A stretch of DNA of 64,000 nt from Microbacterium lushaniae. GTDB taxonomy: Bacteria > Actinomycetota > Actinomycetes > Actinomycetales > Microbacteriaceae. Location of the stretch: the NCBI RefSeq assembly GCF_008727775.1, contig NZ_CP044232.1:558001-622000 (forward strand). The letters are read 5' to 3'. Below the pieces are notes generated by a model. The model saw nothing but the letters and a program-made list of their open reading frames with translations. It did not search any database and was not told the origin of the DNA. Within the stretch, counting starts at the first letter, position 1, and each line of letters begins with the position of its first letter. Below are positions 43,944-57,995 of this stretch, one piece after another. A program made the translations under genes and the position numbers.

Positions 43944-44191
43944 GCGCTCACATTACCCGCGGGGCGCGCGTGACCGGACGAGGCGACCGTCGCGGGGGTC
44001 GATCTCGGCGTGGCGATCGAGGATCTCTCCGGCTACTCCGACGGCCGGTCGCTGTTCGCCGGCAAACGGGATCGGGAGCGGCCGCGGTGCTGCGCGCCCG
44101 TCGCCGGCGCGCCCGGGCCTGACAGAAGCCGGGACATCACGCCGAGCACGGGGCGACCTCTCGTCCCAGCCCCGGCGCATCGATACGTGCG

Positions 44192-44584
44192 TCAGCTGCG
44201 GTGGCCGCCGGGCGCGTCGTCGAGAGGCTGGGTCGATGCCTTCCGCCGGCGGATCTCCTCTTCGAGTGCCGCGATCTCGATCTCGCGTTCGAGGGCGGCG
44301 AGCTGCGCCTCGGTGGAGTGAGGGACGGGTGGCGCGGACGGCTGGGCCGCCGCATCCGTCGCCCACCGGCGCGGGTCGCCGAAGCTCATCGGTTCGCGGC
44401 GGCTTCCCCACTCTCGCCCGATGGTGAACCACAGGATGGATCCGATGACGGGGAGCAGGACGATGAGGAGCACCCAGCCGAACTTGGGGAGGTGATTCAC
44501 CTGGTCGTCGCGGCGGGTGATGACGTCGATGAGCGCGATCACGAGGAGCGCAAAGAGCAGGAGGGGCATCACCAGCACGGTCAT
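44192..44584 (-). CDS. PLDc_N-type membrane protein
   Basis: 130 residues with two membrane helices (VLVMPLLLFALLVIALIDVI and FGWVLLIVLLPVIGSILWFT) separated by the short loop TRRDDQVNHLPK: the phospholipase D/nuclease N-terminal (PLDc_N) family. The C-terminal half is a charged coiled-coil-like stretch (TEAQLAALEREIEIAALEEE). Function unknown; small PLDc_N proteins occur in many actinobacteria. ATG at 44584 lacks an obvious ribosome binding site, so the start is less certain. Confidence 0.75.
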   Translation of the reverse strand: MTVLVMPLLLFALLVIALIDVITRRDDQVNHLPKFGWVLLIVLLPVIGSILWFTIGREWGSRREPMSFGDPRRWATDAAAQPSAPPVPHSTEAQLAALEREIEIAALEEEIRRRKASTQPLDDAPGGHRS

Positions 44585-44915
44585 AGCGTGGCGGAACTCG
44601 CCGCGCGTCGCAATGATGACGTGGACCGGATTCGGAACGGTGTCGGATGGCCGTCGTGGGGTACGTGCGCGCACGGGGGGCAGGTGGTCGACCGCGTGGG
44701 GGAGCGGCTCGGTGCAGCGGGGTTGTCTTCGCGGAGTCGGCGGGCGATCCGGACGGTCTCTGTGGTGAGAGGGCGGGCCACGGGGTGCGGTGCAGGCGGG
44801 AGCCGGGAGATGACGGCGGGTGCCGGCTACACGGCGCGACCTCGGGCGGGTGGTGCGGCCGGGCGGAGCAGGGGGGAGCGTCAGAAGGGTGGTGGGTCGC
44901 CGTCGGGGACGAACA

Positions 44916-46325
44916 TCACCCGTGGCGGCGGTTCGTCGGTGTAGACGTTGCCGAGGGACTGGTGAATTCGAGGGTGCCGTCGTGGAGCTGTCGCACGGTC
45001 CAGGCGGTTTCGGTCTTGAGGGTGTGATGTCGCGTGCACAGGTGGGCGAGGTTGCCGATCGCGGTCGGTCCGCCCTCGTGGTGCTCGTGATTGTGGTCGA
45101 GCTGACATCGGTGCGCGGGCTGGCGGCATCCGAATCCGCGGCAGTGCTGGTCGCGGGCACGGAGGAAGCGCTGCTGGTCGGCGCGCGGCGTGTATCGGTC
45201 GACTTCGAGGACCGTCCCGGTGATGGGATCGCACATCACCCGGTCCCACCCCGGGGCGTCGCCGGCGAGGCGCCGGGCGGTTTCGGGATCGATGGGGATC
45301 TGTCCGTGGAGACTTGCTCCCGCGTCGGTCTTGCCCGCGAGGGTCAGTACCGGCACGACCACCTGCACGTGCGCCCGGATCGCGCCGAGCCCGCCGGCGC
45401 TGCGGTCGGTCACCGGATCGATGGCCGGAGCGCCGGTCAACAGCATGTCGGAGACCAGGTCGGCGCCGATCTGCGCCATCGTGCGGGTGTCGTCGATCAC
45501 CTCGGCGGGCGCGGGCTCGGCATCCTCCCCGGCGGGCGGAGTCGTGAGGCCGTCGCGCGTGAAGTCCGCCGCATCCGCCGCGGTGGCAGCATCCGGTGTC
45601 GTCTCGGGTTCGGGCGGAGTGGTCACCGACTTCTCGGCGGCGCGGCGGGCGCGCTCGGCGTTGGCGGCGTCGCGGATGATGCGAGCCTGCTGACGGATGC
45701 GGTCGCGGATGCCGTAGGCGAGGGCGGCGGGGAGCCGGACCTGCAGGAGGGCCATCCCGTCATCGAGGTCGACGATGCTCACCCCGCGGGTCTCGCGCGC
45801 CTGGGCGTGGCGTTCCGACATGCCCACGGGATTGACCGCCTCGGCCAGCTGCCGCGCGAATGCGCGCGTGCGCCCCGGCGTCTCGCGCGCCGCACGTTCG
45901 AGCACGGTGTGCTCCCACGCCTCGCGGACATCGGCGTTGTCGATTGATGCGCCCACTTCGAGGATCACGTCGGCGTGCCGCTTGGAGATGCGGGCGTCTT
46001 CGAGCGCAGTGAGCGTCGCGGAGAACCGGGTGACGAACGCGTAGGCGTCGTTCAACTCTTTCTGCGCGGTGAGGTCGTGCACGTGAGTGGCGAAGGCCAC
46101 TTCGGCCGACAGCGACCGCATCGGCATTTCTCGATCACGGGAGACCTGCGAAGACAACCGCTCCATCTGCTCCAGCGCGACCGCGGCGAGCTCTGCCTGG
46201 TGGCGGATGAGGGCCGCCTGCGCGCGGGCGATGGCCGCCTTCTCTTCGAGCACCCCCGCCAGCCCGGCATGCATCCGGGTGGCTTCGTGGGGCCTGATTT
46301 CACCAGGCCGGGGGCTGTTCTCCAT
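44916..46325 (-). CDS. DUF222/HNH endonuclease, copy 2, with frameshifted C-terminal tail
   Basis: 469 residues. DUF222 domain (AQAALIRHQAELAAVALEQM, LNDAYAFVTRFSATLTAL) and an intact HNH domain (CRGFGCRQPAHRCQLDHNHEHH, HLCTRHHTLK). Compared with copy 1 the tail is out of frame: after EFTSP one base is missing in the GGG at 44955-44957 (plus strand), so the expected LGNVYTD...VPDGDPPPF is in another frame ending at 44881. The present protein ends in SATSTPTNRRHG. The nuclease core is unaffected. ATG 6 bases after TAGCTT on the minus strand (46332-46337), so leaderless. Confidence 0.85.
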   Translation of the reverse strand: MENSPRPGEIRPHEATRMHAGLAGVLEEKAAIARAQAALIRHQAELAAVALEQMERLSSQVSRDREMPMRSLSAEVAFATHVHDLTAQKELNDAYAFVTRFSATLTALEDARISKRHADVILEVGASIDNADVREAWEHTVLERAARETPGRTRAFARQLAEAVNPVGMSERHAQARETRGVSIVDLDDGMALLQVRLPAALAYGIRDRIRQQARIIRDAANAERARRAAEKSVTTPPEPETTPDAATAADAADFTRDGLTTPPAGEDAEPAPAEVIDDTRTMAQIGADLVSDMLLTGAPAIDPVTDRSAGGLGAIRAHVQVVVPVLTLAGKTDAGASLHGQIPIDPETARRLAGDAPGWDRVMCDPITGTVLEVDRYTPRADQQRFLRARDQHCRGFGCRQPAHRCQLDHNHEHHEGGPTAIGNLAHLCTRHHTLKTETAWTVRQLHDGTLEFTSPSATSTPTNRRHG

Positions 46326-46698
46326 GACCCGAAGCTACTCGGGGGTTCCGACATTCCCGGGTGCTCCGACCGGCCGAGGACGGAGCCTGTGGATAACTCG
46401 CCGGCGCGTCGTATCAAGGCGCCCGAGGGTCGCGGCGGGCCTATCGCGCCCCAACTTGTATCGGATGTCACAGGAGGGGTGGTCCACACGCGACGAGAGC
46501 GCCAGGGCGCCGTCGAAGCACGCAGCGACAAAACGCTGATCAGCGTATCTATTCGCAATCGCGCCCGCTCTTCGCGGGAATCATTCACTTGTCTCTTCTG
46601 CAGATACAAGTCGGTCCATCAGGATCGATACATGTCCGGCGATGCCGCCGGTGTCAGGGCCCACGAGACTCACCACGTTCGCTCACCGAAGAGGCTGA
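46326..46698. other. Regulatory intergenic region of the GntR operon
   Basis: 373 bases between the divergent HNH gene and gntR. It contains the HNH gene promoter at its left end, the 25-bp palindrome at 46587-46611, TGATCA palindromes around 46538-46547 and no convincing gene. The GntR start follows at 46699. Confidence 0.6.
46587..46611. promoter_or_regulatory. Imperfect palindrome, candidate GntR operator
   Basis: ACTTGT at the left and ACAAGT at the right frame a 25-bp palindrome (10 of 12 pairs match) with an inner CTGCAG. TTGT...ACAA symmetry is typical of GntR-family operators. It lies 87 bases before the gntR start and upstream of the whole lsr-like operon. Confidence 0.6.
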
Positions 46699-47547
46699 AT
46701 GTCCATGCTCGCGTTGCCACAACTCGACCGCGGATCGACCGCTCCGATCTGGTTTCAGATCATGCGAGCCATCGAGACGGAGATCGCGGATGGCGCCTGG
46801 TCACCGGGTGACCGCCTCCCGAGTGAGAGCGAGCTCTGTGGGCACTTCTCCGCCTCTCGCACCTCGGTTCGTGACGCGCTGGCCCGTCTGGAGAGCGCGG
46901 GCATCATTTCCCGTCAACAGGGCAAGGGGGCCTTCGTCGAGCGGGTGCAGGGCCCGTCGGCGTGGACGCTCCCTTCTGCCCCCAGCCTTCTCGGCGAGTA
47001 CAGCGAACAGGGCCGGAGCGCCCTGAGCTCACAGATCCTCCGCGCGGGCATCGAACCGCTCCCTTCCTGGGCGGCGGCTGTGGTCGGTCGCGACTCTCCT
47101 GACGGCCAGGGCTTCGTCCTCGAGCGCGTGCGCGCGGTGGGCGCCCGCACGGCGGTGCACGTCATCAACTACCTCCCCACACGCTTCGCCGGCGTCATTC
47201 CCGACCTCCGCGACCCTCGGGCAAGCCTCTACGCCACGATCACGAGGGTGGCCGACGTCCGCATCGCACGGATGCACCGCACTATCGAAGCCGTCGCTGC
47301 GGATCGCATCCTCGCCGGGCTCCTTGACATCGAGCCCGGCCATCCCATCGTCGTCGTGGAAGCGGTCGCGTACGACCAGAGCGGGGAGCCCATCGACTTC
47401 TCGCGAGCGTCGGTGCGAACCGACCGGCTTCGCGTGAGCGTGGATACGGGCTTCGACGCCGCGGGCATGACGAGCGAGACAGCTTCGGGCCGGTACCCAC
47501 CCGCCCCCCGTCAGAGCCGCCGCGCCGGCGCACGACCACCCCGCTGA
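46699..47547 (+). CDS. GntR/HutC-family transcriptional regulator
   Basis: 282 residues. N-terminal winged helix (FQIMRAIETEIADGAWSPGDRLPSESEL, SRTSVRDALARLESAGII, QGKGAFV) and a C-terminal UTRA ligand-binding domain (LERVRAVGARTAVHVINYLP, DIEPGHPIVVVEAVAYDQSG). It probably senses a phosphorylated intermediate of the downstream pathway and replaces LsrR, the regulator used in enteric lsr operons. ATG at 46699 or 46705. First gene of an eight-gene operon on the plus strand; the next gene begins 26 bases downstream. Confidence 0.9.
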   Translation: MSMLALPQLDRGSTAPIWFQIMRAIETEIADGAWSPGDRLPSESELCGHFSASRTSVRDALARLESAGIISRQQGKGAFVERVQGPSAWTLPSAPSLLGEYSEQGRSALSSQILRAGIEPLPSWAAAVVGRDSPDGQGFVLERVRAVGARTAVHVINYLPTRFAGVIPDLRDPRASLYATITRVADVRIARMHRTIEAVAADRILAGLLDIEPGHPIVVVEAVAYDQSGEPIDFSRASVRTDRLRVSVDTGFDAAGMTSETASGRYPPAPRQSRRAGARPPR

Positions 47548-47573
47548 ACGCCCCCGCACATGGAGATCATTCG

Positions 47574-48593
47574 ATGACCGACCCTCGCATCCTCATCATC
47601 GGCGACAGCTACATGCCCGCCGACGTGTTCGTGCGCGCTTTCGATCGCCACGGACTCGTCGCCGGCTCCGTCTCGATGACGATGGCGGACCCGACGTGGG
47701 ACACCGCCGGGATCCAAGAGTTCGAAGGCGATCCCGCGGAGGTCGCACGTCTCGCGGAGGGTTACGAGATCCTCGCATTCCATGCGGCGCCCGTGACAGC
47801 CGAGGTGCTCGCGGAGCTGCCCGAGCTCCGGCTCCTCGGGTGCGCTCGCGGCGGACCCGTCAATGTGGACCTCGCTGCGGCCAAAGCGCGCGGGGTGCGT
47901 GTGACGACGACGCCCGGGAAGAACGCCGATGCGGTCGCCGACCTCACGATCGGATTCCTGATCTCGCTCGTGCGCAACGTTCCGGCATCCGTGCGCGACG
48001 TCGACGAGCGCGTGGCTGACGGGCGACCACTCGCGGAATCCACGTTCGAGGGCGCCCGGTGGTTCGGTCGCGAAGTGAAGGGGTTGCGGCTGGGACTCAT
48101 CGGGTACGGAAACGTCGCGCGACTCGTGGCGCAGCGGGCGAGAGCCCTCGGCGCCGACATCATCGCCTACGACCCGTTCATCGACCCCGGATCCGTCGCC
48201 GACGCGTCGATCGTGACGGATCTCGACGCGCTTCTCGAGCAGAGCGACGTCGTCAGCGTCCATGCCCGGGCGACAGCAGAGAACCGCCACATGATCGCCG
48301 CGCCGCAGATCGCCCGGATGCCCCGGGGGTCGTTCCTGATCAACACCGCGAGGGAGTCGCTCGTCGACGAACAGGCCATGCTCGACGCGATGCGCAGCGG
48401 ACAACTCGCCGGAGTCGCGCTCGATGTCAACGAACCGGACGGGCCGTGGCGCGAGCTCGTGGCGCAGCCCAACCTCCTCCTCACCCCTCACCTGGCGGGG
48501 GCGACGCGGGAGACCTTGTCGCGCGGCGCCGACATGCTCGCATCCGAGGTCAGGTCGTTCATGTCCGGGGAAGCACTGCGGTGGGAACGATGA
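47574..48593 (+). CDS. D-isomer 2-hydroxyacid dehydrogenase (SerA-like)
   Basis: 339 residues with the family's substrate-binding and NAD-binding domains: LGCARGGPVNVDLAAAKARG, Rossmann motif GLIGYGNVARLVA, and catalytic Arg (VHARATAENRHM), Glu (LDVNEPDG) and His (TPHLAGATRE). It would oxidise a 2-hydroxyacid or reduce a 2-ketoacid with NAD(H). No equivalent enzyme exists in the enteric lsr pathway, so its presence suggests an extra step or a different substrate. Its stop overlaps the kinase ATG (ATGA). Confidence 0.9.
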   Translation: MTDPRILIIGDSYMPADVFVRAFDRHGLVAGSVSMTMADPTWDTAGIQEFEGDPAEVARLAEGYEILAFHAAPVTAEVLAELPELRLLGCARGGPVNVDLAAAKARGVRVTTTPGKNADAVADLTIGFLISLVRNVPASVRDVDERVADGRPLAESTFEGARWFGREVKGLRLGLIGYGNVARLVAQRARALGADIIAYDPFIDPGSVADASIVTDLDALLEQSDVVSVHARATAENRHMIAAPQIARMPRGSFLINTARESLVDEQAMLDAMRSGQLAGVALDVNEPDGPWRELVAQPNLLLTPHLAGATRETLSRGADMLASEVRSFMSGEALRWER

Positions 48594-50176
48594 GCGACGT
48601 CTTCCTCGCGATAGACGCCGGCACCGGATCGGCGCGGGCGCTCGCTTTCGACATCGAAGGCCGGCTCGTCGCACAGGCCGGTCGGGAATGGTCGCATGCG
48701 ACGGTGCCGGGCCACCCGGGCGGCACGACCTTCGACACGTCTGCCGGCTGGCGGGCGATCGGTGACGCCGTGTCGGAGGTGGTCGCGCACCTCGACGGCC
48801 GCCGCATCGCCGCGATCGCAGCGTCGAGTATGCGAGAGGGGTTCGTCCTCTACGGCGCGGATGGAGATGAGCTCTGGGCGTGCCCGAACACCGACGGCCG
48901 GTCCCGCGCCGAGGCTGACGAACTGGTGGCCCTCGGGATCGCCGACGCGATCTACCGCACTGCCGGCGACTGGGTGTCGATCACCGCGCCCGCGCGCTTG
49001 CGATGGATCGCGCGCCACGAACCCGACGTGCTCGCGCGCGCTCGTCATCTCGGGATGCTCAGCGACTGGGTCACCCGGCGCCTCACCGGTGCGTTCGTGA
49101 CCGACCCGACGTGCGGATCGAGTTCTGCGCTGTTCGACCTGCGGGCACGGGAATGGTCGGCGGATCTGGCCGACCTGGTCGGCGTCGATCGCGCCATCCT
49201 CCCTCCCGTCGTCGAATGCGGCGCGGTCGTCGGCGTCGTGACGCCCACCGCAGCCGCCGCGACCGGCGTTCCCGCGGGCACTCCGGTGGTGACCGGGGGT
49301 GCCGACACGCAGCTCGCGCTTCACGGCATCGACGCGCGCGAAGGAACGCCGACGATCGTGGCGGGCACGTTCTGGCAGACCGCAGCGGTCATGTCCGAGC
49401 CGCTCATCGATCCCGACCGGCGCCTGCGCACGCTCTGCCATGTCGAGCAGGACACTTGGATGCTGGAGGGGATCGGATTCCTCTCGGGCCTGGCCATGCG
49501 GTGGTTCCGGGATGCCATGTGTCCCGACGCCGTGAGTACCGGGGCCGCTACCGGCCGTTCGGCCTTCTCCGTCATGGAGGAGTGGGCTGCGGACGTGCCG
49601 CCGGGGGCGAACGGGATCGTCGCGACGATGGGCAACGTCATGCAGGCGGATGCGTGGCACCACGCCGCGCCTTCGTTCACGGGCTTCGACATCAACGATG
49701 CCGTCCGCTCATCGCGTGGCGCGTTCATCCGGGCGATCGAGGAGTCTGCCGCGATCGTCGCGGCGGCTCATCTCGACATCCTGTCCGCTCTCACGGAAGG
49801 ACGTGCCGTCGCGCAAGGGGTTGTCACGTTCACCGGCGGATCGAGCGCTGGCGCATTGTGGCCCGCCGTCATCGCCGGCGTCACCGGCTTGGAGACGCTC
49901 GTCACCCCGGCTCCCGAGGCCACCTCGTACGGCGCCGCCCGGCTCGCGGCGAAGGGCGTCGGCGCCTCACTCCCTCCGATGGGGGAGCCCGACCGTGTCG
50001 TGCGGGTCGACCCGGAAGAACGTGACGCCTACGGCGACGTCGTGGCGCGGTGGCACCGGGTCTACCGCGACGTCCTCTCGATCTCTGGCCCTGACCTCCC
50101 ACCTCTCTTCCTGCCTCCGGGAGCCGCGCGCGGTCCCGCGGAGTTCCGGCGCACGAGCGCCGGAAACCTCAGCTGA
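48590..50176 (+). CDS. lsrK: FGGY-family kinase, LsrK-like (autoinducer-2 kinase type)
   Basis: 528 residues. Recalled alignment to E. coli LsrK is strong across the protein: DAGTGSARALAFDIEGRL, SSMREGFVLYGADGDELWACPN, MLSDWVTRRLTG, GGADTQLALHGI, GTFWQTAAVMSEP, GLAMRWFRDAMCP, WHHAAPSFTGFDI, FTGGSSAGALWP. LsrK phosphorylates autoinducer-2 (DPD) on entry. With the LsrF-like gene next to it, the phosphorylated-DPD pathway is the best guess, though another C4-C5 sugar is possible. ATGA overlap with the dehydrogenase; gap of 24 bases to lsrF. Confidence 0.85.
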   Translation: MSDVFLAIDAGTGSARALAFDIEGRLVAQAGREWSHATVPGHPGGTTFDTSAGWRAIGDAVSEVVAHLDGRRIAAIAASSMREGFVLYGADGDELWACPNTDGRSRAEADELVALGIADAIYRTAGDWVSITAPARLRWIARHEPDVLARARHLGMLSDWVTRRLTGAFVTDPTCGSSSALFDLRAREWSADLADLVGVDRAILPPVVECGAVVGVVTPTAAAATGVPAGTPVVTGGADTQLALHGIDAREGTPTIVAGTFWQTAAVMSEPLIDPDRRLRTLCHVEQDTWMLEGIGFLSGLAMRWFRDAMCPDAVSTGAATGRSAFSVMEEWAADVPPGANGIVATMGNVMQADAWHHAAPSFTGFDINDAVRSSRGAFIRAIEESAAIVAAAHLDILSALTEGRAVAQGVVTFTGGSSAGALWPAVIAGVTGLETLVTPAPEATSYGAARLAAKGVGASLPPMGEPDRVVRVDPEERDAYGDVVARWHRVYRDVLSISGPDLPPLFLPPGAARGPAEFRRTSAGNLS

Positions 50177-50200
50177 CCGACCCCGAACAAGGAGAAACCC

Positions 50201-51091
50201 ATGGCAGATCTCGAAGGCAACTCCGCCGCGAAGCGGTTCCACCCCGACACGCCCGCTGCGCGGTTCGAACACCAGATCCGGGGAGCCGGGAATCTCGACT
50301 GGGGTATGCAGAACCGCCTGGCGCGGATCCTCGACCCCGGAACCGGTCGCACCGTCATGCTCGCGTTCGATCACGGGTACTTCCAAGGCCCCACGTCGGG
50401 CCTCGAGCGCATCGACCTCAACATCGCGCCGCTCGCCCCGTACGCCGATGCCCTCATGTGCACGCGGGGCGCGCTACGCACCTCGATCCCGCCCGCGACG
50501 CGCGCGGGACTCGTGCTGCGCGCATCGGGAGGTCCGTCCATCCTCAAGGAGCTCTCCGACGAGTTCACGGCGATGACGATGGCCGACGCGGTCCGGATCA
50601 ATGCCGATGCCGTCGCCGTGCAGGTGTTCGTCGGCGGGGAGCACGAGACGCGCAGCATCCGCAATCTCACGACACTCGTCGACGAGGGCTACTCCGCAGG
50701 CATCCCGGTTCTCGGGGTCACCGCAGTCGGCAAGGAGCTGACGCGTGATGCCCGGTACCTCGGGCTTGCGACGCGCATCATCGCGGAGCTCGGGGCACAA
50801 CTCGTGAAGACGTACTACTGCGAGGAGGGCTTCGAAGATGTCGTCGCCGGCTGCCCCGTGCCCGTCATCATGGCCGGTGGCAAGAAGCTGCCCGAGCTCG
50901 ATGCGCTCACAATGGCGTCCTACGCCGTCCGCGCCGGGGCGGCCGGCGTCGATATGGGCCGGAACATCTTCCAGAGCTCCCACCCCGCCGCGATGATGAC
51001 CGCCGTCCGCGGGGTCGTCCACGACGATCTCGACCCGGCTGACGCCTACGAGTTGTTCCGCGACGCCACGGAGACGAAGGCGCTCGCATGA
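50201..51091 (+). CDS. lsrF: LsrF-like 3-hydroxy-5-phosphonooxypentane-2,4-dione thiolase
   Basis: 296 residues, DeoC/FbaB-type aldolase barrel. By recalled comparison it matches E. coli LsrF closely over its whole length: [66 protein letters not shown] and [13 protein letters not shown]. The Schiff-base lysine is Lys203 (QLVKTYY), the same number I recall for E. coli. LsrF splits the phosphorylated diketone and passes the acetyl group to CoA, giving dihydroxyacetone phosphate and acetyl-CoA. AAGGAGA ribosome binding site. Confidence 0.88.
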
Positions 51092-51495
51092 GCGCCGAGA
51101 TCCTCCGGTCGGCAGACGCTGCGCTGCGCTTCGGCGAGTGGGGGCCGGCCTACCTGTCGACGACGGATGCCGCAGCGTTCGGGATCGTCGTGCTCCGACC
51201 CGGCGATGAGTTCGACAACCACCTCCACGAACAGCACACCGAGTCGTTCGTCGTCCTCGAAGGACGCGCGGAGTTCTGGATAGACCGGGCGCAGCCGGTC
51301 GTCGCCTCCGCGGGCGAGATACTGCACGCCGAGCCGAACGAAGAGCACTTCGTGCGAAACCCCTTCGAGGAGACCTTCCGCGCCATCTTCGTCAAGTCCC
51401 CTTGGGTCGAGGGCGACAAGGTGGACAAGCCCTGGACGCCGGACGCGTCCGCCACAGACCCGCAGCCCCACCCCATCGAAAGGACACGACCATGA
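51088..51495 (+). CDS. Cupin-fold protein of the lsr-like operon
   Basis: 135 residues, a single cupin domain: [20 protein letters not shown] with the His-x-His-x2-His metal site, [12 protein letters not shown], and a second motif [18 protein letters not shown] metal-dependent isomerase, dioxygenase or binding protein. In its place the enteric operon has LsrG, the isomerase acting between LsrK and LsrF, so this cupin may be a non-homologous replacement; that is inference only. ATGA overlaps on both sides show tight coupling. Confidence 0.8.
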
Positions 51496-52814
51496 GTGTG
51501 CAACGACGCTCCTCATCACCCGCTCGCCGAGCCCGCCGCCTGACGGCCGTCATCGCTGTCGCATCGAGCGCGGGCCTCGTGCTCAGCGGCTGCGGAGGCG
51601 GAACGGGCGACGACTCCGGCGGCGGAAGTCAGACGCTCAAGGTGCTGATCGCCGCGCCGCAGGAAGGCGCGGGGAAGATCCTCGAGGCCGACTTCGAAGA
51701 GGAGACGGGAGTCGAGGTCGAAGTTGAGGTGGTTCCGTACGACCAGATCCAAACCAAGGCGATCCTCGACGCGCAGTCGGGGACGAACAACTACGACGTC
51801 ATCCAGTACTGGTACACGTCGGTCGGTGCGCTCGCCGAGGCCGACGCGCTCGCGGACATCACCGAGTGGGTCGAGGGCGATGAAGAGATCGACTCGTCCG
51901 ACTTCATCGAAGCCATCACCGCGCCGTACACGGAGTATGAGGGCGCCACCTTTGGACTGCCGATCGACGGCGACACGCACGTGCTCTTCTACAACAAGGC
52001 GATCTTCGAACGCAATGGCGTCGAGGTCCCCGCGACCTGGGACGAGTACCTCCAGGTGTCGAAGACGATCACCGACGCGGAGAAGGCGAACGGCGTCTAC
52101 GGTAACGCCCTGCTCGGGTCCAAGAGCGCCTTCAACATCGGCTCCACGTTCTTCAACCGCCTCGCGACGATGTCTCCCGACCCGATCGACTCGCAGATGC
52201 CGCAGCTGAACACGGATGCGGCGGTCGCGGCCGCCCAGTCCATGCTGGATGCGGCGCCCTACGCGCTGCCGAGCCCGCTCGAGATCGGCTTCGAGCAGGC
52301 GCTCCCGCAGTTCCTATCGGGATCGGTCGGAATGATCGAGTTCTGGACCGACCTCGGCGTCTTCGCACAGGATCCCGAGCAGTCCAAGATCGTCGACGGA
52401 TGGGGCGTCGCGCCGCTCCCCGTCGGCCCCGAGGGGTCGGTGTCGGGTGCACTCAATGCCGGATGGGCCATGGGAATCAGCCCTAACGCGAGCGACGAGG
52501 ACCTCGCGAAGCAGTTCGTCGCATTCGCGTCGTCGAAGGACATGAACGAGAAGCTCATCACGACGACCGGTTCGGGCGTCGACCCGATCCGGACCTCGAC
52601 GCTGGAGAGCTCCGCATACACCGAGTTCGCCCCCGAGGTGTCGGCGGTCGCGGCGGAGGTGCTGCCGAACGCGCAGTCGTGGCCGACGTCGCCTCAGGCT
52701 CCGGAGATGATCCAGTCCCTCAGCGACAATCTCGCGCTCATGCTGCAAGGCAGCCTCACAGCCGAAGAAGCCATGCAGCAGACGTGGGACTCGTGGCAGT
52801 CGATGGCCGACTGA
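51492..52814 (+). CDS. Family 1 solute-binding lipoprotein (sugar-type ABC transporter)
   Basis: 440 residues. Signal with lipobox (GLVLSGCGGG) and Gly/Asp linker, then the SBP_bac_1 fold: QTLKVLIAAPQEGAG, YDVIQYWYTSVGALAEADAL, GLPIDGDTHVLFYNKAIFERNG, VGMIEFWTDLG. This is a maltose/oligosaccharide-type binding protein, unrelated to LsrB, so the ligand delivered need not be AI-2. ATGA overlap with the cupin gene. Begins the transport part of the operon. Confidence 0.93.
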   Translation: MSVQRRSSSPARRARRLTAVIAVASSAGLVLSGCGGGTGDDSGGGSQTLKVLIAAPQEGAGKILEADFEEETGVEVEVEVVPYDQIQTKAILDAQSGTNNYDVIQYWYTSVGALAEADALADITEWVEGDEEIDSSDFIEAITAPYTEYEGATFGLPIDGDTHVLFYNKAIFERNGVEVPATWDEYLQVSKTITDAEKANGVYGNALLGSKSAFNIGSTFFNRLATMSPDPIDSQMPQLNTDAAVAAAQSMLDAAPYALPSPLEIGFEQALPQFLSGSVGMIEFWTDLGVFAQDPEQSKIVDGWGVAPLPVGPEGSVSGALNAGWAMGISPNASDEDLAKQFVAFASSKDMNEKLITTTGSGVDPIRTSTLESSAYTEFAPEVSAVAAEVLPNAQSWPTSPQAPEMIQSLSDNLALMLQGSLTAEEAMQQTWDSWQSMAD

Positions 52815-52843
52815 CCCGTCACCGCCCTGGGAAAGGACCCTCC

Positions 52844-53749
52844 ATGTCGCAGCTCGCTTCGGGCAAACGCGTCTCGCGACGCGCGGCTTGGACGGGGCGC
52901 GCGCTGCTCGCACCGGCGATCGTCGCCATCGGGCTGATCGCCGTCTATCCGCTCGCGTACATCGTCGCTGCCTCCTTCTCGGAGTCGTCGCTGGGGCGTC
53001 CTTTCTCGGAGTGGGTAGGCTTCGGCAACTTCGCGGCATTGCTGGGGGACGGGGTCACGCTCCCGTCCCTCGGCAGGTCGCTCATTTTCGCGATCCCCTC
53101 GGCGCTCCTCGCGCTCATTGCGGGGCTCATCGTGGCCCTGTCGTTGGACGCGGCGGTCAAGGGCGGGCGCGTCATCCGCGTGCTCCTCCTGCTTCCCCTG
53201 ATGACACCGCCTGTCATGGCCGGGGTGATCTGGAAGCTCATGCTCGCCCCGACGGGCGGGCTTCTCAACAACATCGGACAGACCTTCTCTCCGGGCGCCG
53301 AGCCGTTCCTGTTTCTCGGTTCCAGCCCCGCCGCGATGGTCTCCCTCATCCTCGTCGACGCGTGGCAGTGGACGCCCTTCTGCGTTCTGCTCGTGTTCGC
53401 CGCGCTGCAAACGTTGCCGACGGAGGTGTACGAGGCATCGCAAGTCGATGGTGCGAGCGTCTGGCAGACGTTCTGGCGCATCACCTTCCCGCTCGTGCTG
53501 CCGAGTCTCGTTACGGTGCTCCTCCTCAAGCTCGTCGTGTCGTTCAAGGTCTTCGATCTGGTCTTCATCATGACCAGCGGAGGGCCCGGCTTCGATACGA
53601 CCGTCAGCAGCTACGAGATCTACCGGACCGGGTTGCAGACTTTCGACGTCGGGGCGGCGGCGGCTCAGACGATCGCATTCCTCGTGCTCGTCACCATCGT
53701 CATCCTGCCGCTCAACGCTGCGCGCCAGCGCATGCACAAGGAGGGATGA
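52844..53749 (+). CDS. Sugar ABC transporter permease, MalF-like
   Basis: 301 residues, six membrane helices (LLAPAIVAIGLIAVYPLAYI and others), with the EAA loop EVYEASQVDGASVWQTFWRITFP that contacts the ATPase and the typical FIMTSGGPG before the last helices. Forms the membrane channel with the following MalG-like protein. AAAGGA ribosome binding site. Its stop overlaps the next ATG. No ATP-binding gene follows. Confidence 0.94.
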   Translation: MSQLASGKRVSRRAAWTGRALLAPAIVAIGLIAVYPLAYIVAASFSESSLGRPFSEWVGFGNFAALLGDGVTLPSLGRSLIFAIPSALLALIAGLIVALSLDAAVKGGRVIRVLLLLPLMTPPVMAGVIWKLMLAPTGGLLNNIGQTFSPGAEPFLFLGSSPAAMVSLILVDAWQWTPFCVLLVFAALQTLPTEVYEASQVDGASVWQTFWRITFPLVLPSLVTVLLLKLVVSFKVFDLVFIMTSGGPGFDTTVSSYEIYRTGLQTFDVGAAAAQTIAFLVLVTIVILPLNAARQRMHKEG

Positions 53750-54678
53750 ACGTGTCGCTCACGGTTCGTAACGAGGCCCTTGGTGAAGAGACTCGAACGC
53801 TCGTCGTCCCGCCAGGGCGGCGTCGCACCAAGTCGCGCACATCGAGCACGTCGCGGCCGGGGCGGCCGTCCGGGTTCGTGACGGCGCTGAAGTGGATCGT
53901 CATCGGCGTCGCGATCACACTCGCGTTGCTACCCGTCCTCTACATGGTGGGCATGTCGTTCAAGAGCCCCGACGACATCCTCTCGACGCGCATTTTCCCG
54001 TCCCGCCTCGCGGGGGAGAACTGGGTCGCGGCTTTCGAGAACTGGCCCATCCTCACGTATCTACGCAACTCGTTCGGCGCCGCGTTCGTCGCGGTGATCG
54101 TGGCGCTCGCGATCTCGATACCGGCGAACTACGCGATGGCGCGCCTGCGGGTAGGGGGAAAGCAGACGCTGGGCCTCATCGTCTCCGCGTATGTTGCGCC
54201 CCCGATCGTCGCGATCATCCCGCTATTCGTACTCGTCCGGAGCGCCGGCCTCATGGACTCGGTCATCGGGCTGGGCGTCGTCGAAGGTCTCTTGCTCACG
54301 CCGGTGGCGGTGTGGCTCCTCGACGGCTTCTTCCGCGCGATCCCGCTCGAGATCGACGAAGCGGCAGCGCTCGACGGCTGTGGACCGCTGCGCACGCTGT
54401 GGTCGGTGATCCTGCCGCTTGCGGCACCCGGCATCATTGCCGTGTCGATCATCGTGTTCATCCTCGTCTACAACGACTTCCTCATCCCATTGCTGCTGAC
54501 GCAGAGCGTGGACTCGCAGACGCTCCCGGTCGGCATCGCCCTCATGCAGGGCGGCCGCGAGGTGATGTTCGGTCAGATGGCGGCAGCCAGCCTTTCCGGG
54601 CTCATCCCGATCTACCTGCTGGCGCTGTTCCTGCAGAAGTGGCTCGTGGGAGGCCTCACCCACGGGAGTATCAAGTAA
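53746..54678 (+). CDS. Sugar ABC transporter permease, MalG-like
   Basis: 310 residues with a longer basic N-terminal extension (PPGRRRTKSRTSSTS) before the first of six membrane helices; MalG-type features include GMSFKSPDDIL, the EAA loop (EIDEAAALDGCGPLRTLWSVILP) and a C-terminal LFLQKWLVGGLTHGSIK. Last gene of the operon. The operon lacks an ATPase, so the transporter must borrow one from elsewhere, as MsiK-type ATPases serve many sugar importers in actinobacteria. Confidence 0.94.
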   Translation: MNVSLTVRNEALGEETRTLVVPPGRRRTKSRTSSTSRPGRPSGFVTALKWIVIGVAITLALLPVLYMVGMSFKSPDDILSTRIFPSRLAGENWVAAFENWPILTYLRNSFGAAFVAVIVALAISIPANYAMARLRVGGKQTLGLIVSAYVAPPIVAIIPLFVLVRSAGLMDSVIGLGVVEGLLLTPVAVWLLDGFFRAIPLEIDEAAALDGCGPLRTLWSVILPLAAPGIIAVSIIVFILVYNDFLIPLLLTQSVDSQTLPVGIALMQGGREVMFGQMAAASLSGLIPIYLLALFLQKWLVGGLTHGSIK

Positions 54679-54693
54679 GCCGCCGCAGCGGTT

Positions 54694-54743
54694 GGGCTGA
54701 CTTGGCCACACTCCAATAAGAGTGCAGCCCCCGCGTCAGCGGG
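54694..54743. terminator. Hairpins between the lsr-like operon and ugd
   Basis: GGGCTG (54694-54699) pairs with CAGCCC (54725-54730) around an inner CACTC...GAGTG stem; a separate CCCGC-GTCA-GCGGG stem (54730-54743) adjoins. Together they form a likely bidirectional terminator for the convergent genes. Confidence 0.55.
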
Positions 54744-56054
54744 TTACGGCCGTCCCATTCCGTGGTATTCCCAGCCCGCACCGCGCCAGGCGGCGGCGTC
54801 GAGGCAGTTGCGCCCGTCGACGATGACCTTTCCTGCGACGAGTTCGCCGGCGTGCTCGGGGGAGAGCTCGCGGCGGTACTCGTCCCACTCCGTGACGACG
54901 ATCACTGCATCCGCGCCTCGCAGGGCCTCGTCGCGGTCTTCGACGTAGTTGAGTTGTGGGTGGATGCGGCGGGCGTTCGCGATCGCGGCAGGGTCGGTGA
55001 TCGTGACCCACGCGCCGAGGCCGTGCAGGCGGACGGCGACGTCGAGGGCGGGGGAGTCACGGATGTCGTCGCTGTGCGGTTTGAACGCCGCACCGAGGAC
55101 GGTGATGTTCTTCTTGAACACCGACCCGCCGAATGCGCCCACGACGATGTCGACGGCGCGGTCGCGGCGTCGAAGGTTGATGGCGTCGACCTCGCGTAGA
55201 AACGCCACGGATTCGCCGCGGCCGAGCTCTTCGGCGCGCGCGGAGAAGGCGCGGATGTCTTTGGGCAGGCACCCGCCGCCGAAGCCGATGCCGGCGCCGA
55301 GGAACCGCCGGCCGATCCGGGCGTCATGCCCGATCGCGTCAGCGAGAGTCGTGACATCGGCGCCGGTGACTTCGGCGATCTCGGCCATTGCGTTGATGAA
55401 GGAAATCTTGGTCGCCAGGAACGCGTTCGCCGAGACCTTCACGAGCTCGGCGGTCGCGTAGTCGGTGACGATGAAGGGCGTGTTCTTCGCGATCGAGGGG
55501 TGGTAGACCTCGCGGAGCACGTCGGCTGCTCGCTTGCCCTCCTCCCCGGCGGGGACACCGGCCACGAGCCGGTCGGGGTCGATGGTGTCTTGCACGGCCC
55601 AGCCTTCGCGGAGGAACTCCGGGTTCCAGACCAACGTCGCACCGGTCGGGGTCACCCGCTCAGCGAGGGTCGCGGCGGTGCCGACAGGGACGGTCGACTT
55701 CCCCGCGACGATGTCGCCGGCGGCCAAGTAAGGGAGCAGGCCGTCGATCGCGGCGTTGACGTAGGTCATGTCGGCCGCGTAGCCGTCCTTCACCTGAGGT
55801 GTGCCCACCCCCACGAAGTGGACCTTCGCGCCGGCAGCCTCAGCCATGTCGGTCGTGAACCGCAGGCGCCCCGACTGGATGCCTTCGGTCAGGATCTCCG
55901 GGAGCCCGGGCTCAAAGAACGGCGCCTCACCCTTGGACAGCGAAGCGATCTTGCGCTCGTCCACATCGATGCCGACGACCTCGTGCCCGATCGACGCCAT
56001 GGATGCGGCGTGCACCGCACCAAGGTATCCACAACCGATGACTGACAGACGCAT
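54744..56054 (-). CDS. ugd: UDP-glucose 6-dehydrogenase
   Basis: 436 residues of the UDP-glucose/GDP-mannose dehydrogenase family: NAD motif MRLSVIGCGYLGAVHAA, STVPVGTAATL, WNPEFLREGWAVQDTIDPDR, catalytic Cys in GIGFGGGCLPKD, and GAAFKPHSDDIRDSP. Oxidises UDP-glucose to UDP-glucuronate, a building block for acidic capsular polysaccharides. ATG with GGGAG five bases upstream (minus strand). First recognisable gene of the surface-polysaccharide region, though separated from the polymerase gene by a degraded stretch. Confidence 0.95.
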   Translation of the reverse strand: MRLSVIGCGYLGAVHAASMASIGHEVVGIDVDERKIASLSKGEAPFFEPGLPEILTEGIQSGRLRFTTDMAEAAGAKVHFVGVGTPQVKDGYAADMTYVNAAIDGLLPYLAAGDIVAGKSTVPVGTAATLAERVTPTGATLVWNPEFLREGWAVQDTIDPDRLVAGVPAGEEGKRAADVLREVYHPSIAKNTPFIVTDYATAELVKVSANAFLATKISFINAMAEIAEVTGADVTTLADAIGHDARIGRRFLGAGIGFGGGCLPKDIRAFSARAEELGRGESVAFLREVDAINLRRRDRAVDIVVGAFGGSVFKKNITVLGAAFKPHSDDIRDSPALDVAVRLHGLGAWVTITDPAAIANARRIHPQLNYVEDRDEALRGADAVIVVTEWDEYRRELSPEHAGELVAGKVIVDGRNCLDAAAWRGAGWEYHGMGRP

Positions 56055-56274
56055 GGAACTCCCTATATTTGCCGTACTCTTGCGCGGTCACTCACCGTCG
56101 AGCTTCTCTATTCATATCAACTTCCTCACGTGAGCATGTGGCGCGCGCGGGGCTAGCCGCGGCTTCGCCGCCCATCATTCGGAGGTGGAGCAGTCCCCTT
56201 CAGGAGCTACGTTCTCTTGCATCGTCGCCAAGCATGACTGCCCTGATGGGGTTTGCCAGCCACCGTAGTAGGGC

Positions 56275-56307
56275 TGACCTGCCGGCTTTTTAGCACCCGG
56301 CAGGTCA
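56275..56307. terminator. Hairpin with T-rich loop
   Basis: TGACCTGCCGG (56275-56285) and its reverse complement (56297-56307) give an 11-bp stem; the loop contains TTTTT. On both strands it could terminate transcription or be an end of a lost mobile element. Confidence 0.55.
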
Positions 56308-56343
56308 CCGTCACGGGTCTCCCGGCGTCTGCGAGCTCCGCAG

Positions 56344-56535
56344 TCACGAGCGGCAGAGCCTATTTCGGTAGGGCGCCTGCGAAAGATTCGCCGCCGCTCG
56401 CCGCAGTGCTTCGACCTCTTGCTCCAGCCGCCGATAGTTGTTGGGCCTCCCGACGTTCGAGCCTTCTGAATGCGTCTGACCCGGCTTAGTACCCTCTTCG
56501 ACCGCGGCTCGAGGCCACCACTTCCACGGCGTCAC
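56344..56535 (-). pseudogene. Remnant of an IS3-family OrfA transposase
   Basis: On the minus strand a frame reads VEEGTKPGQTHSEGS, then RRLEQEVEALRRAAANL: the GT(R/K)PG-x-T-x-x-E motif and following coiled coil resemble the middle of IS3-type OrfA proteins. The helix-turn-helix N-terminus and OrfB are missing and frames break soon after, so it is a fragment at most. Weak evidence, from pattern memory only. Confidence 0.35.
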
Positions 56536-56684
56536 CGGGTGGGTGGTGGACTCGGAAGTCGGTCGCGATCGGCTCGGCGGTCACTCCGGCCTCGCGGGTA
56601 TACGCGACGTGGACACATTCTTCCCGCGTTCCGCGCAGGTCAACTCGACTCTGATGTCGCCTACTCCTGCGCCAGACCCTCCTG

Positions 56685-57974
56685 TTAGAGGCTGGAGAGC
56701 GGGCGGTTTGCCCACCTGCGAGCCATCCGCGCAACATGTCGCTCCTTGGCTGTGGTCTTTTGCCCAACGGGGCTGGCGTCGTTCAGGACGGCCGCAGCGA
56801 CCAGGATCGGTATCCAATAATGCGACTGTGTATAGAAGGCCGAGGTCATGCCGAACGCCAGCACAGCCCCGATCACCGCCGACGGTGCGATGAGGTTGGT
56901 CTTACGCATGCCGTTCATCGCCACGACGAGAAGCGAGATCGTGATCAAGATGAACCCCATGAGAAGGAATATGCCCCCCTGGTACCAACCGCGCAGGATG
57001 TAGTTGTGGACGACCAGAGATGGCGTCAACGTCCCCTGGTTCAGTGCGTCCATGCCTACGCCCACCCACGGATCCGCGGTGATGTAGTTCCAAGCCCACT
57101 CGTATGTCTGGAAACGAACGAGCAAAGAGGCGACTCCCCCCTCTGCGGAGGCCCCCGTGACTTGCTGGACGCGGCTGGCGAAAGCTTCGGGAAGCAACAC
57201 CGAGAGGTCACCGTTCGCGACCCAGAGGGACACCAGTAAGGAGACCGCCGCGATTAGAAACGAGAGCATCTTGGCAGTGGTGGAAAGACGGACGAAGAAG
57301 AAGAGCAAGCCCACCAACAGAGTGATCAACGAGCTCAGACTTGCCGTTGCCAAAAGCGCAACGACGTTGATTCCAAGAGCGCAAACAAGCAGAAAAGGCC
57401 GAGCGGCCTTACGGCGCAGCAGATCCAGAAGCACGAGAATCGCGAGCGTAGACATAATGCCCAGAACGTTCGGGTGGTACGCAAGTCCATTCACTCGCCC
57501 CTCTCGCGCGATGACCCCGAAAATGGCGATGCCGCCGAGCTGCGCGATCCCGGCAGCCGCGGAAGCAGTCTGTACAACGAGCGTGAGCGTGACGGTGATT
57601 CGCACGAATGACGGGTGTCGGCGTGTCTGAAACAGGATCGCCGCGGGCGCCACCGTTACGAGGAGCGCGAACGTGACAGCGACCGTGGTGCTCTCCGTCA
57701 GATTGCTGTTCTGGCCGGAACTGAGCCCTCCCAAGACAATCATTGCCGCCGCGGCGATGAGCACACCCTGCATACGGGGTCGTGAGACACGGCCCAGGAG
57801 CAGACTCACAAGCGCGAGCACGACCGGAGCAATGCGGACTTGATATGAAACCAAGGCGAAGATCAGCTGCTGGATTGGCGTGATAGCTACCACGACGACC
57901 CAAAGCCAACTGTCCAGCCCAAGTCGATCCGTTCGCTGCTTCCGCGCGGGGCGCACGAGAGTTGTGGGGGGCAT
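56685..57974 (-). CDS. O-antigen ligase/polymerase-like membrane protein (Wzy type)
   Basis: 429 residues with about ten to twelve membrane helices and a Wzy_C-like segment: NGLAYHPNVLGIMSTL, a large outer loop with WVGVGMDALNQGTL and HNYILRGWYQGG. Such proteins join oligosaccharide repeat units outside the membrane. ATG 7 bases after TAGGTT on the minus strand (57982-57987); the promoter box and start together form a perfect palindrome. Sequence is less GC-rich than the core genes, as expected for a polymerase in a variable polysaccharide locus. Confidence 0.82.
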   Translation of the reverse strand: MPPTTLVRPARKQRTDRLGLDSWLWVVVVAITPIQQLIFALVSYQVRIAPVVLALVSLLLGRVSRPRMQGVLIAAAAMIVLGGLSSGQNSNLTESTTVAVTFALLVTVAPAAILFQTRRHPSFVRITVTLTLVVQTASAAAGIAQLGGIAIFGVIAREGRVNGLAYHPNVLGIMSTLAILVLLDLLRRKAARPFLLVCALGINVVALLATASLSSLITLLVGLLFFFVRLSTTAKMLSFLIAAVSLLVSLWVANGDLSVLLPEAFASRVQQVTGASAEGGVASLLVRFQTYEWAWNYITADPWVGVGMDALNQGTLTPSLVVHNYILRGWYQGGIFLLMGFILITISLLVVAMNGMRKTNLIAPSAVIGAVLAFGMTSAFYTQSHYWIPILVAAAVLNDASPVGQKTTAKERHVARMARRWANRPLSSL

Positions 57975-57987
57975 AGGTTCGAACCTA
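57974..57987 (-). promoter_or_regulatory. Leaderless promoter and 14-bp palindrome at the polymerase start
   Basis: TAGGTTC-GAACCTA is a perfect palindrome whose inner half is the -10 box and whose end overlaps the ATG (start base at 57974). It may combine -10 recognition with a repressor site. The neighbouring block CGAACCTACC (57980-57989) recurs at 59647-59656 before a decayed frame. Confidence 0.6.
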
Positions 57988-57995
57988 CCTCGCGG

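What the first reader, a model, noticed from the sequence alone, without database searches (positions are those of the whole stretch)
46587..54678. Actinobacterial lsr-like operon rebuilt with different regulator, isomerase and transporter
Seen: one plus-strand unit with four ATGA overlaps encoding GntR, 2-hydroxyacid dehydrogenase, LsrK-like kinase, LsrF-like thiolase with Lys203, cupin, family 1 binding protein and two MalFG-type permeases. Known: in enteric bacteria LsrK and LsrF act on autoinducer-2 with LsrR, LsrG and LsrACDB. Inferred: here LsrR is replaced by GntR/UTRA, LsrG perhaps by the cupin, and LsrACDB by a sugar-type importer; the added dehydrogenase points to an extra step or a new substrate. 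It could be an AI-2 quenching system or a pathway for a related phosphorylated diketose.
Basis: partly seen in the sequence, partly recalled or inferred. Interest (0 to 1): 0.85.

Follow-up and report, generated by a model that had tools for sequence, protein, structure and literature searches.

The report
Lsr-like deoxysugar operon in Microbacterium
A Microbacterium carries an eight-gene unit whose kinase, cupin and thiolase resemble enzymes that other bacteria use to break down the signal molecule AI-2, but with a different importer, a different switch and an extra dehydrogenase, so it more likely burns a related deoxysugar than serves signalling.

Summary
In detail: eight plus-strand genes (46699-54678), four ATGA overlaps, and a palindromic operator-like site (46587-46611) found once in the genome. 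The same eight kinds of gene stand in the same order in five other loci (four Microbacterium, one probable Agrococcus). It is not an lsr operon with parts swapped. The kinase is sister to the LsrK of lsr loci, misses NCBI's LsrK cut-off, yet keeps 9 of 10 proposed DPD-pocket residues. The thiolase passes the LsrF model, but so do three of three stand-alone homologues tested, and Lys203 is invariant in 104 of 104 sequences; neither is diagnostic. The cupin belongs to the family that stands in for LsrG in 15 of 20 lsrK loci (LsrG in the other 5, never both). LuxS occurs in 2 of 6 carriers. The dehydrogenase gene adjoins the kinase gene in 7 of 7 loci with this kinase type and suggests a substrate two electrons more reduced than DPD. 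Best reading: a deoxypentulose is oxidised, phosphorylated, isomerised by the cupin and thiolysed to acetyl-CoA and DHAP (confidence 0.4). AI-2 scavenging and another sugar remain open. New variant of a known kind; no activity was tested.

The parts
46587..46611 (.). Inverted repeat, probable operator of the GntR regulator
   Evidence: Arms of 10 nt, 90% complementary; only site in the genome with up to 2 mismatches; conserved upstream of the same operon in L009 and L014, variant forms in L015 and L158. Binding not tested.
46699..47547 (+). GntR family regulator with UTRA ligand domain
   Evidence: PF00392 E 1e-19 and PF07702 E 7e-21
47574..48593 (+). D-2-hydroxyacid dehydrogenase superfamily protein with an ARGGPVN loop
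48590..50176 (+). FGGY kinase, sister group of LsrK, with LsrK-type substrate pocket
   Evidence: 5ya0 (LsrK) E 3e-103; NF008187 446 bits, cut-off 528; tree; pocket 9 of 10 identical
50201..51091 (+). LsrF-family thiolase/aldolase, Lys203 conserved
   Evidence: NF006081 458 bits, cut-off 297; 3gkf (LsrF) E 2e-113; tree
51088..51495 (+). Small cupin of the family found in place of LsrG in many lsr loci
   Evidence: PF07883 E 2e-15; model of lsr-locus cupins alone scores it E 7e-29, first hit outside the operon types discussed 0.001; model pLDDT 91.6, best fold match a phosphomannose isomerase
51492..52814 (+). Family 1 (CUT1-type) solute-binding lipoprotein
   Evidence: PF01547 E 8e-39
52844..53749 (+). 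MalF/UgpA-type permease
   Evidence: PF00528 E 1e-17; best NCBIfam UgpA, under its cut-off
53746..54678 (+). MalG-type permease
   Evidence: PF00528 E 3e-13; best NCBIfam MalG, under its cut-off. No ATPase gene in the unit; one UgpC-type ATPase over the family cut-off elsewhere in the genome.

Best explanation
The unit is a sugar-catabolic operon that uses Lsr chemistry. Inferred steps: the family 1 ABC importer, powered by a shared ATPase, brings in a five-carbon deoxyketose (or a compound giving one). The dehydrogenase oxidises a secondary hydroxyl of it, before or after the kinase phosphorylates its terminal hydroxymethyl group, so that P-DPD or an isomeric phosphorylated dione arises. The cupin isomerises this to 3-hydroxy-5-phosphonooxypentane-2,4-dione, as LsrG does. 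The LsrF-type enzyme transfers the acetyl group to CoA and releases DHAP. GntR/UTRA represses the unit at 46587-46611 until a pathway sugar phosphate binds. Shown by sequence: gene content, conservation, families, trees, kinase pocket, cupin-LsrG alternation, unique operator-like site. Not shown: every substrate and every reaction.
For: Kinase sister to LsrK with 9 of 10 pocket residues identical, the tenth variable within LsrK; the eight FGGY rows outside this group share one to four. Cupin family replaces LsrG in 15 of 20 lsrK loci. LsrF family. Dehydrogenase and kinase are joined by ATGA here and occur in the same 2 of 148 genomes, the own one included. They adjoin in 7 of 7 loci with a window-type kinase (window, L009, L014, L015, L104, L105, L158) and in L024, there with LsrR, an epimerase and a thiolase. 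The sister thiolases, five rows, lie beside an aldolase-SDR fusion in 4, MtnA in 3 and the same cupin in 3; the fifth, L019, is a 4.4-kb contig that begins just before the thiolase and shows none. Known chemistry (LsrF/LsrG products from passages of PMC8016206; 5-deoxyribulose 1-phosphate from passages of PMC6079011; the comparison of formulas is mine): 5-deoxyribulose 1-phosphate minus two hydrogens is the LsrF substrate. LuxS is in 2 of 6 carriers.
Against: No member of the D-2-hydroxyacid dehydrogenase superfamily is known to me to oxidise a ketose, and the usual catalytic Glu position is Asp here. Relatives of this dehydrogenase sit next to FGGY kinases with quite different pockets, so the pair does not by itself point to DPD. 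The kinase of L106, next outside the window-type clade, has no such dehydrogenase beside it, and L104 has the pair without LsrF or cupin. LsrF-family proteins are mostly without an LsrK-type kinase (7 of 50 genomes have one), so thiolysis rather than aldol cleavage is assumed. Family 1 importers often carry oligosaccharides or polyols (recalled). By recalled stereochemistry, 1-deoxy-D-xylulose would give the other C4 enantiomer of DPD. Own genome has luxS, which suits AI-2.
Confidence: 0.4

Rival explanations
1. AI-2 scavenging or quenching: the importer takes up AI-2/DPD from neighbours, the kinase, cupin and thiolase consume it as in Lsr, and the dehydrogenase only drains or detoxifies a side product.
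For: LsrK pocket kept; cupin and LsrF family as in lsr loci; luxS in the own genome.
Against: LuxS in 2 of 6 full-cassette carriers, against 10 of 11 tested carriers of cupin-type lsr operons in one actinobacterial family; no LsrB/LsrACDB or LsrR in the unit; kinase outside the LsrK clade; the dehydrogenase has no known role in AI-2 breakdown (recalled).
Confidence: 0.25
2. Catabolism of another sugar (tetrulose, pentulose, 6-deoxyhexulose or a sugar acid): kinase and dehydrogenase give a 1,3-dicarbonyl sugar phosphate R-CO-CHOH-CO-CH2OP, which the LsrF-type enzyme cleaves to another acyl-CoA or, as an aldolase, to an aldehyde, plus DHAP.
For: The dehydrogenase subfamily adjoins other FGGY kinases in Streptomyces, Paracoccus and Sagittula plasmids, in two of the three with a class II aldolase; LsrF relatives adjoin FGGY kinase and glycerol-3-phosphate dehydrogenase/oxidase-type genes in Sagittula and Shinella; the known catalytic residues are invariant through the sampled LsrF family; family 1 importer.
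Against: The LsrK-type pocket (Met92, Phe276, Gln278, Ile310 of E. coli numbering) is kept, unlike in those other kinases, and the cupin is of the lsr type.
Confidence: 0.25

Closest known systems
Lsr system of E. coli (LsrK, LsrR, LsrACDB, LsrF, LsrG)
   Same: FGGY kinase with the same proposed DPD pocket, LsrF-family thiolase, genes together
   Different: Kinase is in a sister clade below the NCBI LsrK cut-off; GntR/UTRA for LsrR; family 1 importer for LsrACDB; cupin for LsrG; added dehydrogenase
Cupin-type lsr operons (L107, L108, L121-L130 of one actinobacterial family; L135 Lacticaseibacillus plasmid; L041 UASB270)
   Same: Same cupin family next to the kinase or thiolase gene
   Different: Those with full flanks keep LsrR, LsrACDB and true LsrK and show no match to the dehydrogenase. 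PATRIC already names a 'Cupin domain protein in autoinducer 2 (AI-2)-related operon' in a Bacillus (table passage of PMC8876208).
L024, Acidimicrobiaceae bin: LsrR, DUF4432, SDR, ribulose-phosphate epimerase, VOC, dehydrogenase, LsrK-type kinase, LsrF
   Same: Dehydrogenase-kinase-thiolase core; its kinase passes the LsrK cut-off (589 bits)
   Different: LsrR-type regulator, VOC protein and epimerase, a membrane transporter gene of another type downstream, no cupin
5-deoxyribose disposal / DHAP shunt (DrdK, DrdI/MtnA, DrdA)
   Same: Five-carbon deoxysugar phosphate split to DHAP plus a two-carbon unit (proposed here)
   Different: Drd has an MtnA-type isomerase and a class II aldolase and gives acetaldehyde (passages of PMC6079011); the window has an FGGY kinase, a dehydrogenase and LsrF

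Membership tests
Lsr (AI-2 uptake and processing) system | Kinase within the LsrK clade | tested here: not met
   LsrK 12 rows 100/99, window-type 15 rows 100/100; window-type plus intermediate rows form the sister group at 85/94; all 37 joined at 100/100 against the outgroup
Lsr (AI-2 uptake and processing) system | NCBIfam LsrK equivalog NF008187 over its cut-off | tested here: not met
   446 bits against 528
Lsr (AI-2 uptake and processing) system | Proposed DPD pocket of LsrK | tested here: met
   9 of 10 residues listed in PMC8016206 (passage) identical; V254 is Thr, and varies in LsrK too
Lsr (AI-2 uptake and processing) system | LsrACDB importer | tested here: not met
   No LsrA/B/C/D match within the unit; family 1 binding protein and two MalFG-type permeases. 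The rest of the genome was not searched for LsrB.
Lsr (AI-2 uptake and processing) system | LsrR regulator | tested here: not met
   GntR/UTRA in the unit; the rest of the genome was not searched
Lsr (AI-2 uptake and processing) system | P-DPD isomerase: LsrG or the lsr-type cupin | tested here: inconclusive
   No LsrG-type gene in window 44001-58000; cupin of the lsr type, E 7e-29. That the cupin is an isomerase is inferred.
Lsr (AI-2 uptake and processing) system | Phosphorylates DPD and is induced by phospho-AI-2 | not testable with these tools
   Needs enzyme and reporter assays
LsrF family (NF006081) | Model over cut-off; D57, H58, K203, D251, R254 kept | tested here: met
   458 bits, cut-off 297; sites kept. 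Not diagnostic for AI-2: L016, L064, L138, which have no LsrK-type gene in the stretch, score 498, 514, 471, and the sites are invariant in 104 of 104 rows.
LsrF family (NF006081) | CoA-dependent thiolysis | not testable with these tools
   Needs assay
D-2-hydroxyacid dehydrogenase superfamily | Fold and both Pfam domains | tested here: met
D-2-hydroxyacid dehydrogenase superfamily | Catalytic Arg/Glu/His triad (recalled) | tested here: inconclusive
   Arg260 and His306 invariant; canonical Glu position is Asp289, an invariant Glu287 lies two residues earlier
MalFGK-type (CUT1) importer | Binding protein, two permeases, ATPase | tested here: inconclusive
   First three in the unit; no ATPase gene in the unit; one UgpC-type ATPase over cut-off at G000:C1:2619734-2620810. 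Sharing is inferred.

The most novel reading that the evidence does not exclude
Bacteria make DPD, or its phosphate, as an ordinary catabolic intermediate without LuxS: a dehydrogenase oxidises a deoxypentulose to the level of the AI-2 precursor, and an LsrK-like kinase, a cupin isomerase and an LsrF-type thiolase turn it into DHAP and acetyl-CoA. The AI-2-consuming Lsr enzymes would then be the signalling branch of an older deoxysugar pathway.
Probability: 0.25. Interest if true: 0.78.

Novelty: new variant of a known kind. Interest (0 to 1): 0.55.

Why it matters
It offers a testable alternative to reading LsrK- and LsrF-like genes as quorum sensing. If the kinase uses a deoxypentulose-derived dione, many genes now labelled 'autoinducer-2 kinase' or LsrF may serve sugar catabolism, and the origin of AI-2 processing becomes a direct question. 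The cupin-LsrG alternation also names a candidate for the isomerase in lsr operons that lack LsrG.

Tried and rejected
The LsrF model and Lys203 as proof of AI-2 processing: rejected, because homologues from an Acidobacteria bin, a Chlorobiaceae bin and Parabacteroides pass and carry the same residues. Position 56 (Phe) and 191 (Thr) are shared by the window's clade and lsr LsrFs but also by the MtnA-type and second-paralogue groups, so they do not settle the substrate.

AI-2 quorum sensing of its own by coupling to luxS: not supported by 2 of 6 carriers; background 6 of 20 genomes, the own one included.

Origin of the unit from the lsr operons of family f35 in the same phylum: their 12 kinases group with Lacticaseibacillus LsrK, not with the window (four of them).

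Naming the substrate from the binding protein: its PDB matches are mixed sugar binders with no clear winner. A consensus promoter scan found none, which says little for this organism. Literature searches: LsrK+LsrF+Actinobacteria gave 4 papers, 'autoinducer-2 kinase'+Microbacterium none, 2-hydroxyacid dehydrogenase+FGGY+aldolase+kinase none, cupin+lsrK+AI-2 one. They cover openly licensed papers only; of the papers cited I saw passages, none whole.

Limits: three candidates at most were scored in each genome, so weaker relatives could be missed. One search kept the best 80 of 587 loci; 50 of the 80 were searched for the kinase. Phylogenies are of single genes; many loci come from bins. The cupin and LsrG models contain some of the loci they then match; rebuilt the cupin model from the 15 lsrK loci alone. 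L124 and L132 show only kinase and cupin, not a full lsr operon. One duplicate locus (L131, same place as L108) was left out of the 20. A weak LsrG-type hit in L042 (34 bits) lies outside the 20. An earlier count said that other FGGY kinases keep only D253 of the pocket; one search shows one to four, and the report says so.
Full report
OBSERVATION. Translation and domain scans confirm eight genes on the plus strand: GntR/UTRA, D-2-hydroxyacid dehydrogenase, FGGY kinase, LsrF-family enzyme, cupin, family 1 binding protein and two MalFG-type permeases. Four neighbours overlap by ATGA, at 48590, 51088, 51492 and 53746. Between kinase and thiolase there are 24 bases. A 25-bp inverted repeat lies at 46587-46611, 87 bases before the first gene. 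It occurs once in the 3.65-Mb genome with up to 2 mismatches. It is conserved in front of the operon of L009 and L014; L015 and L158 have variants. The genome is probably a Microbacterium near M. lushaniae, whose dehydrogenase is 98% identical.

CONSERVATION. The same eight kinds of gene stand in the same order in L009 (unnamed, same genus), L014 (M. paraoxydans), L015 (Microbacterium sp. VKM Ac-2870) and L105 (unnamed, same family; its contig length equals that of the Agrococcus sp. SGAir0287 hit P0103) (for the length). L158 (M. halotolerans record) has them too, with a family 2 type permease, a sugar-binding protein, an ATPase and a VOC protein between cupin and binding protein. L104 has dehydrogenase and kinase with a ThuA protein and an importer but no LsrF or cupin. 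The unit is rare: kinase in 2 of 148 genomes at E 1e-70, the own one included, dehydrogenase in the same 2, LsrF-type at E 1e-30 in 6 of 148; kinase at E 1e-100 in 3 of 398 genomes of the family and 4 of 396 of the phylum.

KINASE. Its best solved relative is LsrK (5ya0, E 3e-103; the next, 5e-24). It scores 446 bits on NCBI's LsrK model, cut-off 528; two other window-type kinases score 435 and 391, the kinases of L024 and L040 589 and 584, and those of five lsrK loci 705-852. A tree with 43 rows puts 12 LsrKs of lsr loci in one clade (100/99), 15 window-type rows in another (100/100), and window-type plus intermediate rows beside LsrK (85/94), all 37 apart from other FGGY kinases (100/100). 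A larger quick tree agrees. Of ten residues that PMC8016206 lists for the putative DPD pocket (passage; predicted by models, not from a bound structure), nine are identical; the tenth, V254, is Thr here and is Val, Ala, Cys or Ser among the nine LsrKs compared. The eight FGGY kinases outside this group keep one to four of the ten.

THIOLASE. It passes the LsrF model (458, cut-off 297) and is near the LsrF structures. Yet the family is much wider than AI-2. The 80 best loci kept from one genome per species come from many phyla, and 7 of 50 of those genomes searched have a LsrK-type kinase at E 1e-70. Three members without an LsrK-type gene in the stretch score 471-514 on the same model. The ten sites discussed in the LsrF structure paper (PMC2728841, passages) are invariant in 104 of 104 sequences. 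LsrFs of lsr loci fall in several places of the tree; E. coli LsrF joins enzymes that lie next to FGGY kinase and glycerol-3-phosphate dehydrogenase/oxidase-type genes in Sagittula and Shinella (97). The window's six thiolases form one clade (99), which joins a five-row group from Cellulomonadaceae and other bacteria (93).

SISTER CONTEXT. In that five-row group (L019, L021, L036, L045, L069) the thiolase adjoins an aldolase-SDR fusion in 4 loci, MtnA in 3, and the same cupin in 3 (domains). L019 is a short contig that begins just before the thiolase and shows none; L069 is short too, without MtnA; L045 has no cupin. MtnA-like isomerases make 5-deoxyribulose 1-phosphate in the 5-deoxyribose pathway (PMC6079011, passages). 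By its formula, this compound minus two hydrogens is 3-hydroxy-5-phosphonooxypentane-2,4-dione, the LsrF substrate. This is my inference and the main ground for the deoxypentulose reading.

CUPIN. In 20 loci with a kinase scoring 500 bits or more against E. coli LsrK, 15 have the cupin and 5 have LsrG; none has both or neither. Twelve of the 15 belong to one unnamed actinobacterial family (f35), so lineages are fewer; the others are UASB270, Lacticaseibacillus and Deinococcus. The five with LsrG are E. coli, two rhizobia, Roseicitreum and a Rhodospirillales bin. A model from the 15 lsrK-locus cupins alone scores the window's cupin E 7e-29; beyond the window-type and MtnA-type cupins the first hit scores 0.001. 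The metal motif residues His45, His47, Glu52 and His87 are invariant in 36 sequences. Its predicted fold (pLDDT 91.6) is nearest to a phosphomannose isomerase (E 1e-8), though many cupins follow closely. PATRIC already uses the name 'Cupin domain protein in autoinducer 2 (AI-2)-related operon' (PMC8876208, table passage), so the association is not new. That was the one paper holding cupin, lsrK and AI-2, and the passage says nothing of LsrG.

LUXS. The own genome has luxS, so it may make AI-2. Of the six full-cassette carriers, G000 and G999 have it, G060, G474, G997 and G998 do not; of the lsr carriers in family f35, 10 of 11 tested have it (a twelfth, G934, was not tested). The cassette is therefore not tied to making AI-2, though scavenging from others is possible.

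TRANSPORT. No ATPase gene lies in the unit. One ATPase over the UgpC cut-off lies 2.0 Mb away and may serve several importers, as MsiK does elsewhere (recalled).

JUDGEMENT. The unit works like Lsr in its last three steps with fair likelihood, but by the tests made it is not a member of the Lsr system. I rate deoxypentulose catabolism through a DPD-level intermediate at 0.4, AI-2 scavenging at 0.25, another sugar at 0.25. On rechecking, the pocket counts of the other kinases, the fifth sister thiolase (L019) and the L106 exception were added; the odds stand.

Noticed in passing
G000:C1:2807348-2808151 (L008): A second LsrF-type gene (66% identical) in the same genome, near a GntR gene, a family 2 type importer, an FGGY kinase of another clade and an aldolase-SDR fusion; the same set recurs in L010, L011, L070.
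   Followed up: partly
L041, L107, L108, L121-L130, L132, L135 against L065, L094, L133, L134, L139: Cupin and LsrG exclude each other in 20 of 20 lsrK loci (15 and 5), which suggests that the cupin is a non-orthologous LsrG.
   Followed up: yes
NCBIfam NF006081: The LsrF equivalog model may over-call: proteins of an Acidobacteria bin, a Chlorobiaceae bin and Parabacteroides with no LsrK-type gene nearby pass it well above the cut-off.
   Followed up: partly
L132 9001-10970: Deinococcus psychrotolerans plasmid with lsrK and the cupin next to an MFS transporter gene, no lsr importer or LsrF annotated in the stretch.
   Followed up: no
L134, L139: Ensifer and Sinorhizobium lsr loci carry a class II aldolase gene and no LsrF in the stretch read.
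   Followed up: no
L161, L162, L163: A recurrent module of ARGGPVN dehydrogenase and FGGY kinase, in two of three with a class II aldolase, of unknown substrate.
   Followed up: partly
L024 6830-7363 and L158 3261-3761: Homologous VOC (glyoxalase-type) proteins beside both dehydrogenase-kinase-thiolase clusters, perhaps an epimerase or isomerase.
   Followed up: partly
window 44916-46325 (-) and 54744-59006 (-): Flanks: a DUF222 protein upstream; a UDP-glucose dehydrogenase-type, an O-antigen ligase-type and an acyltransferase gene downstream, on the other strand.
   Followed up: no
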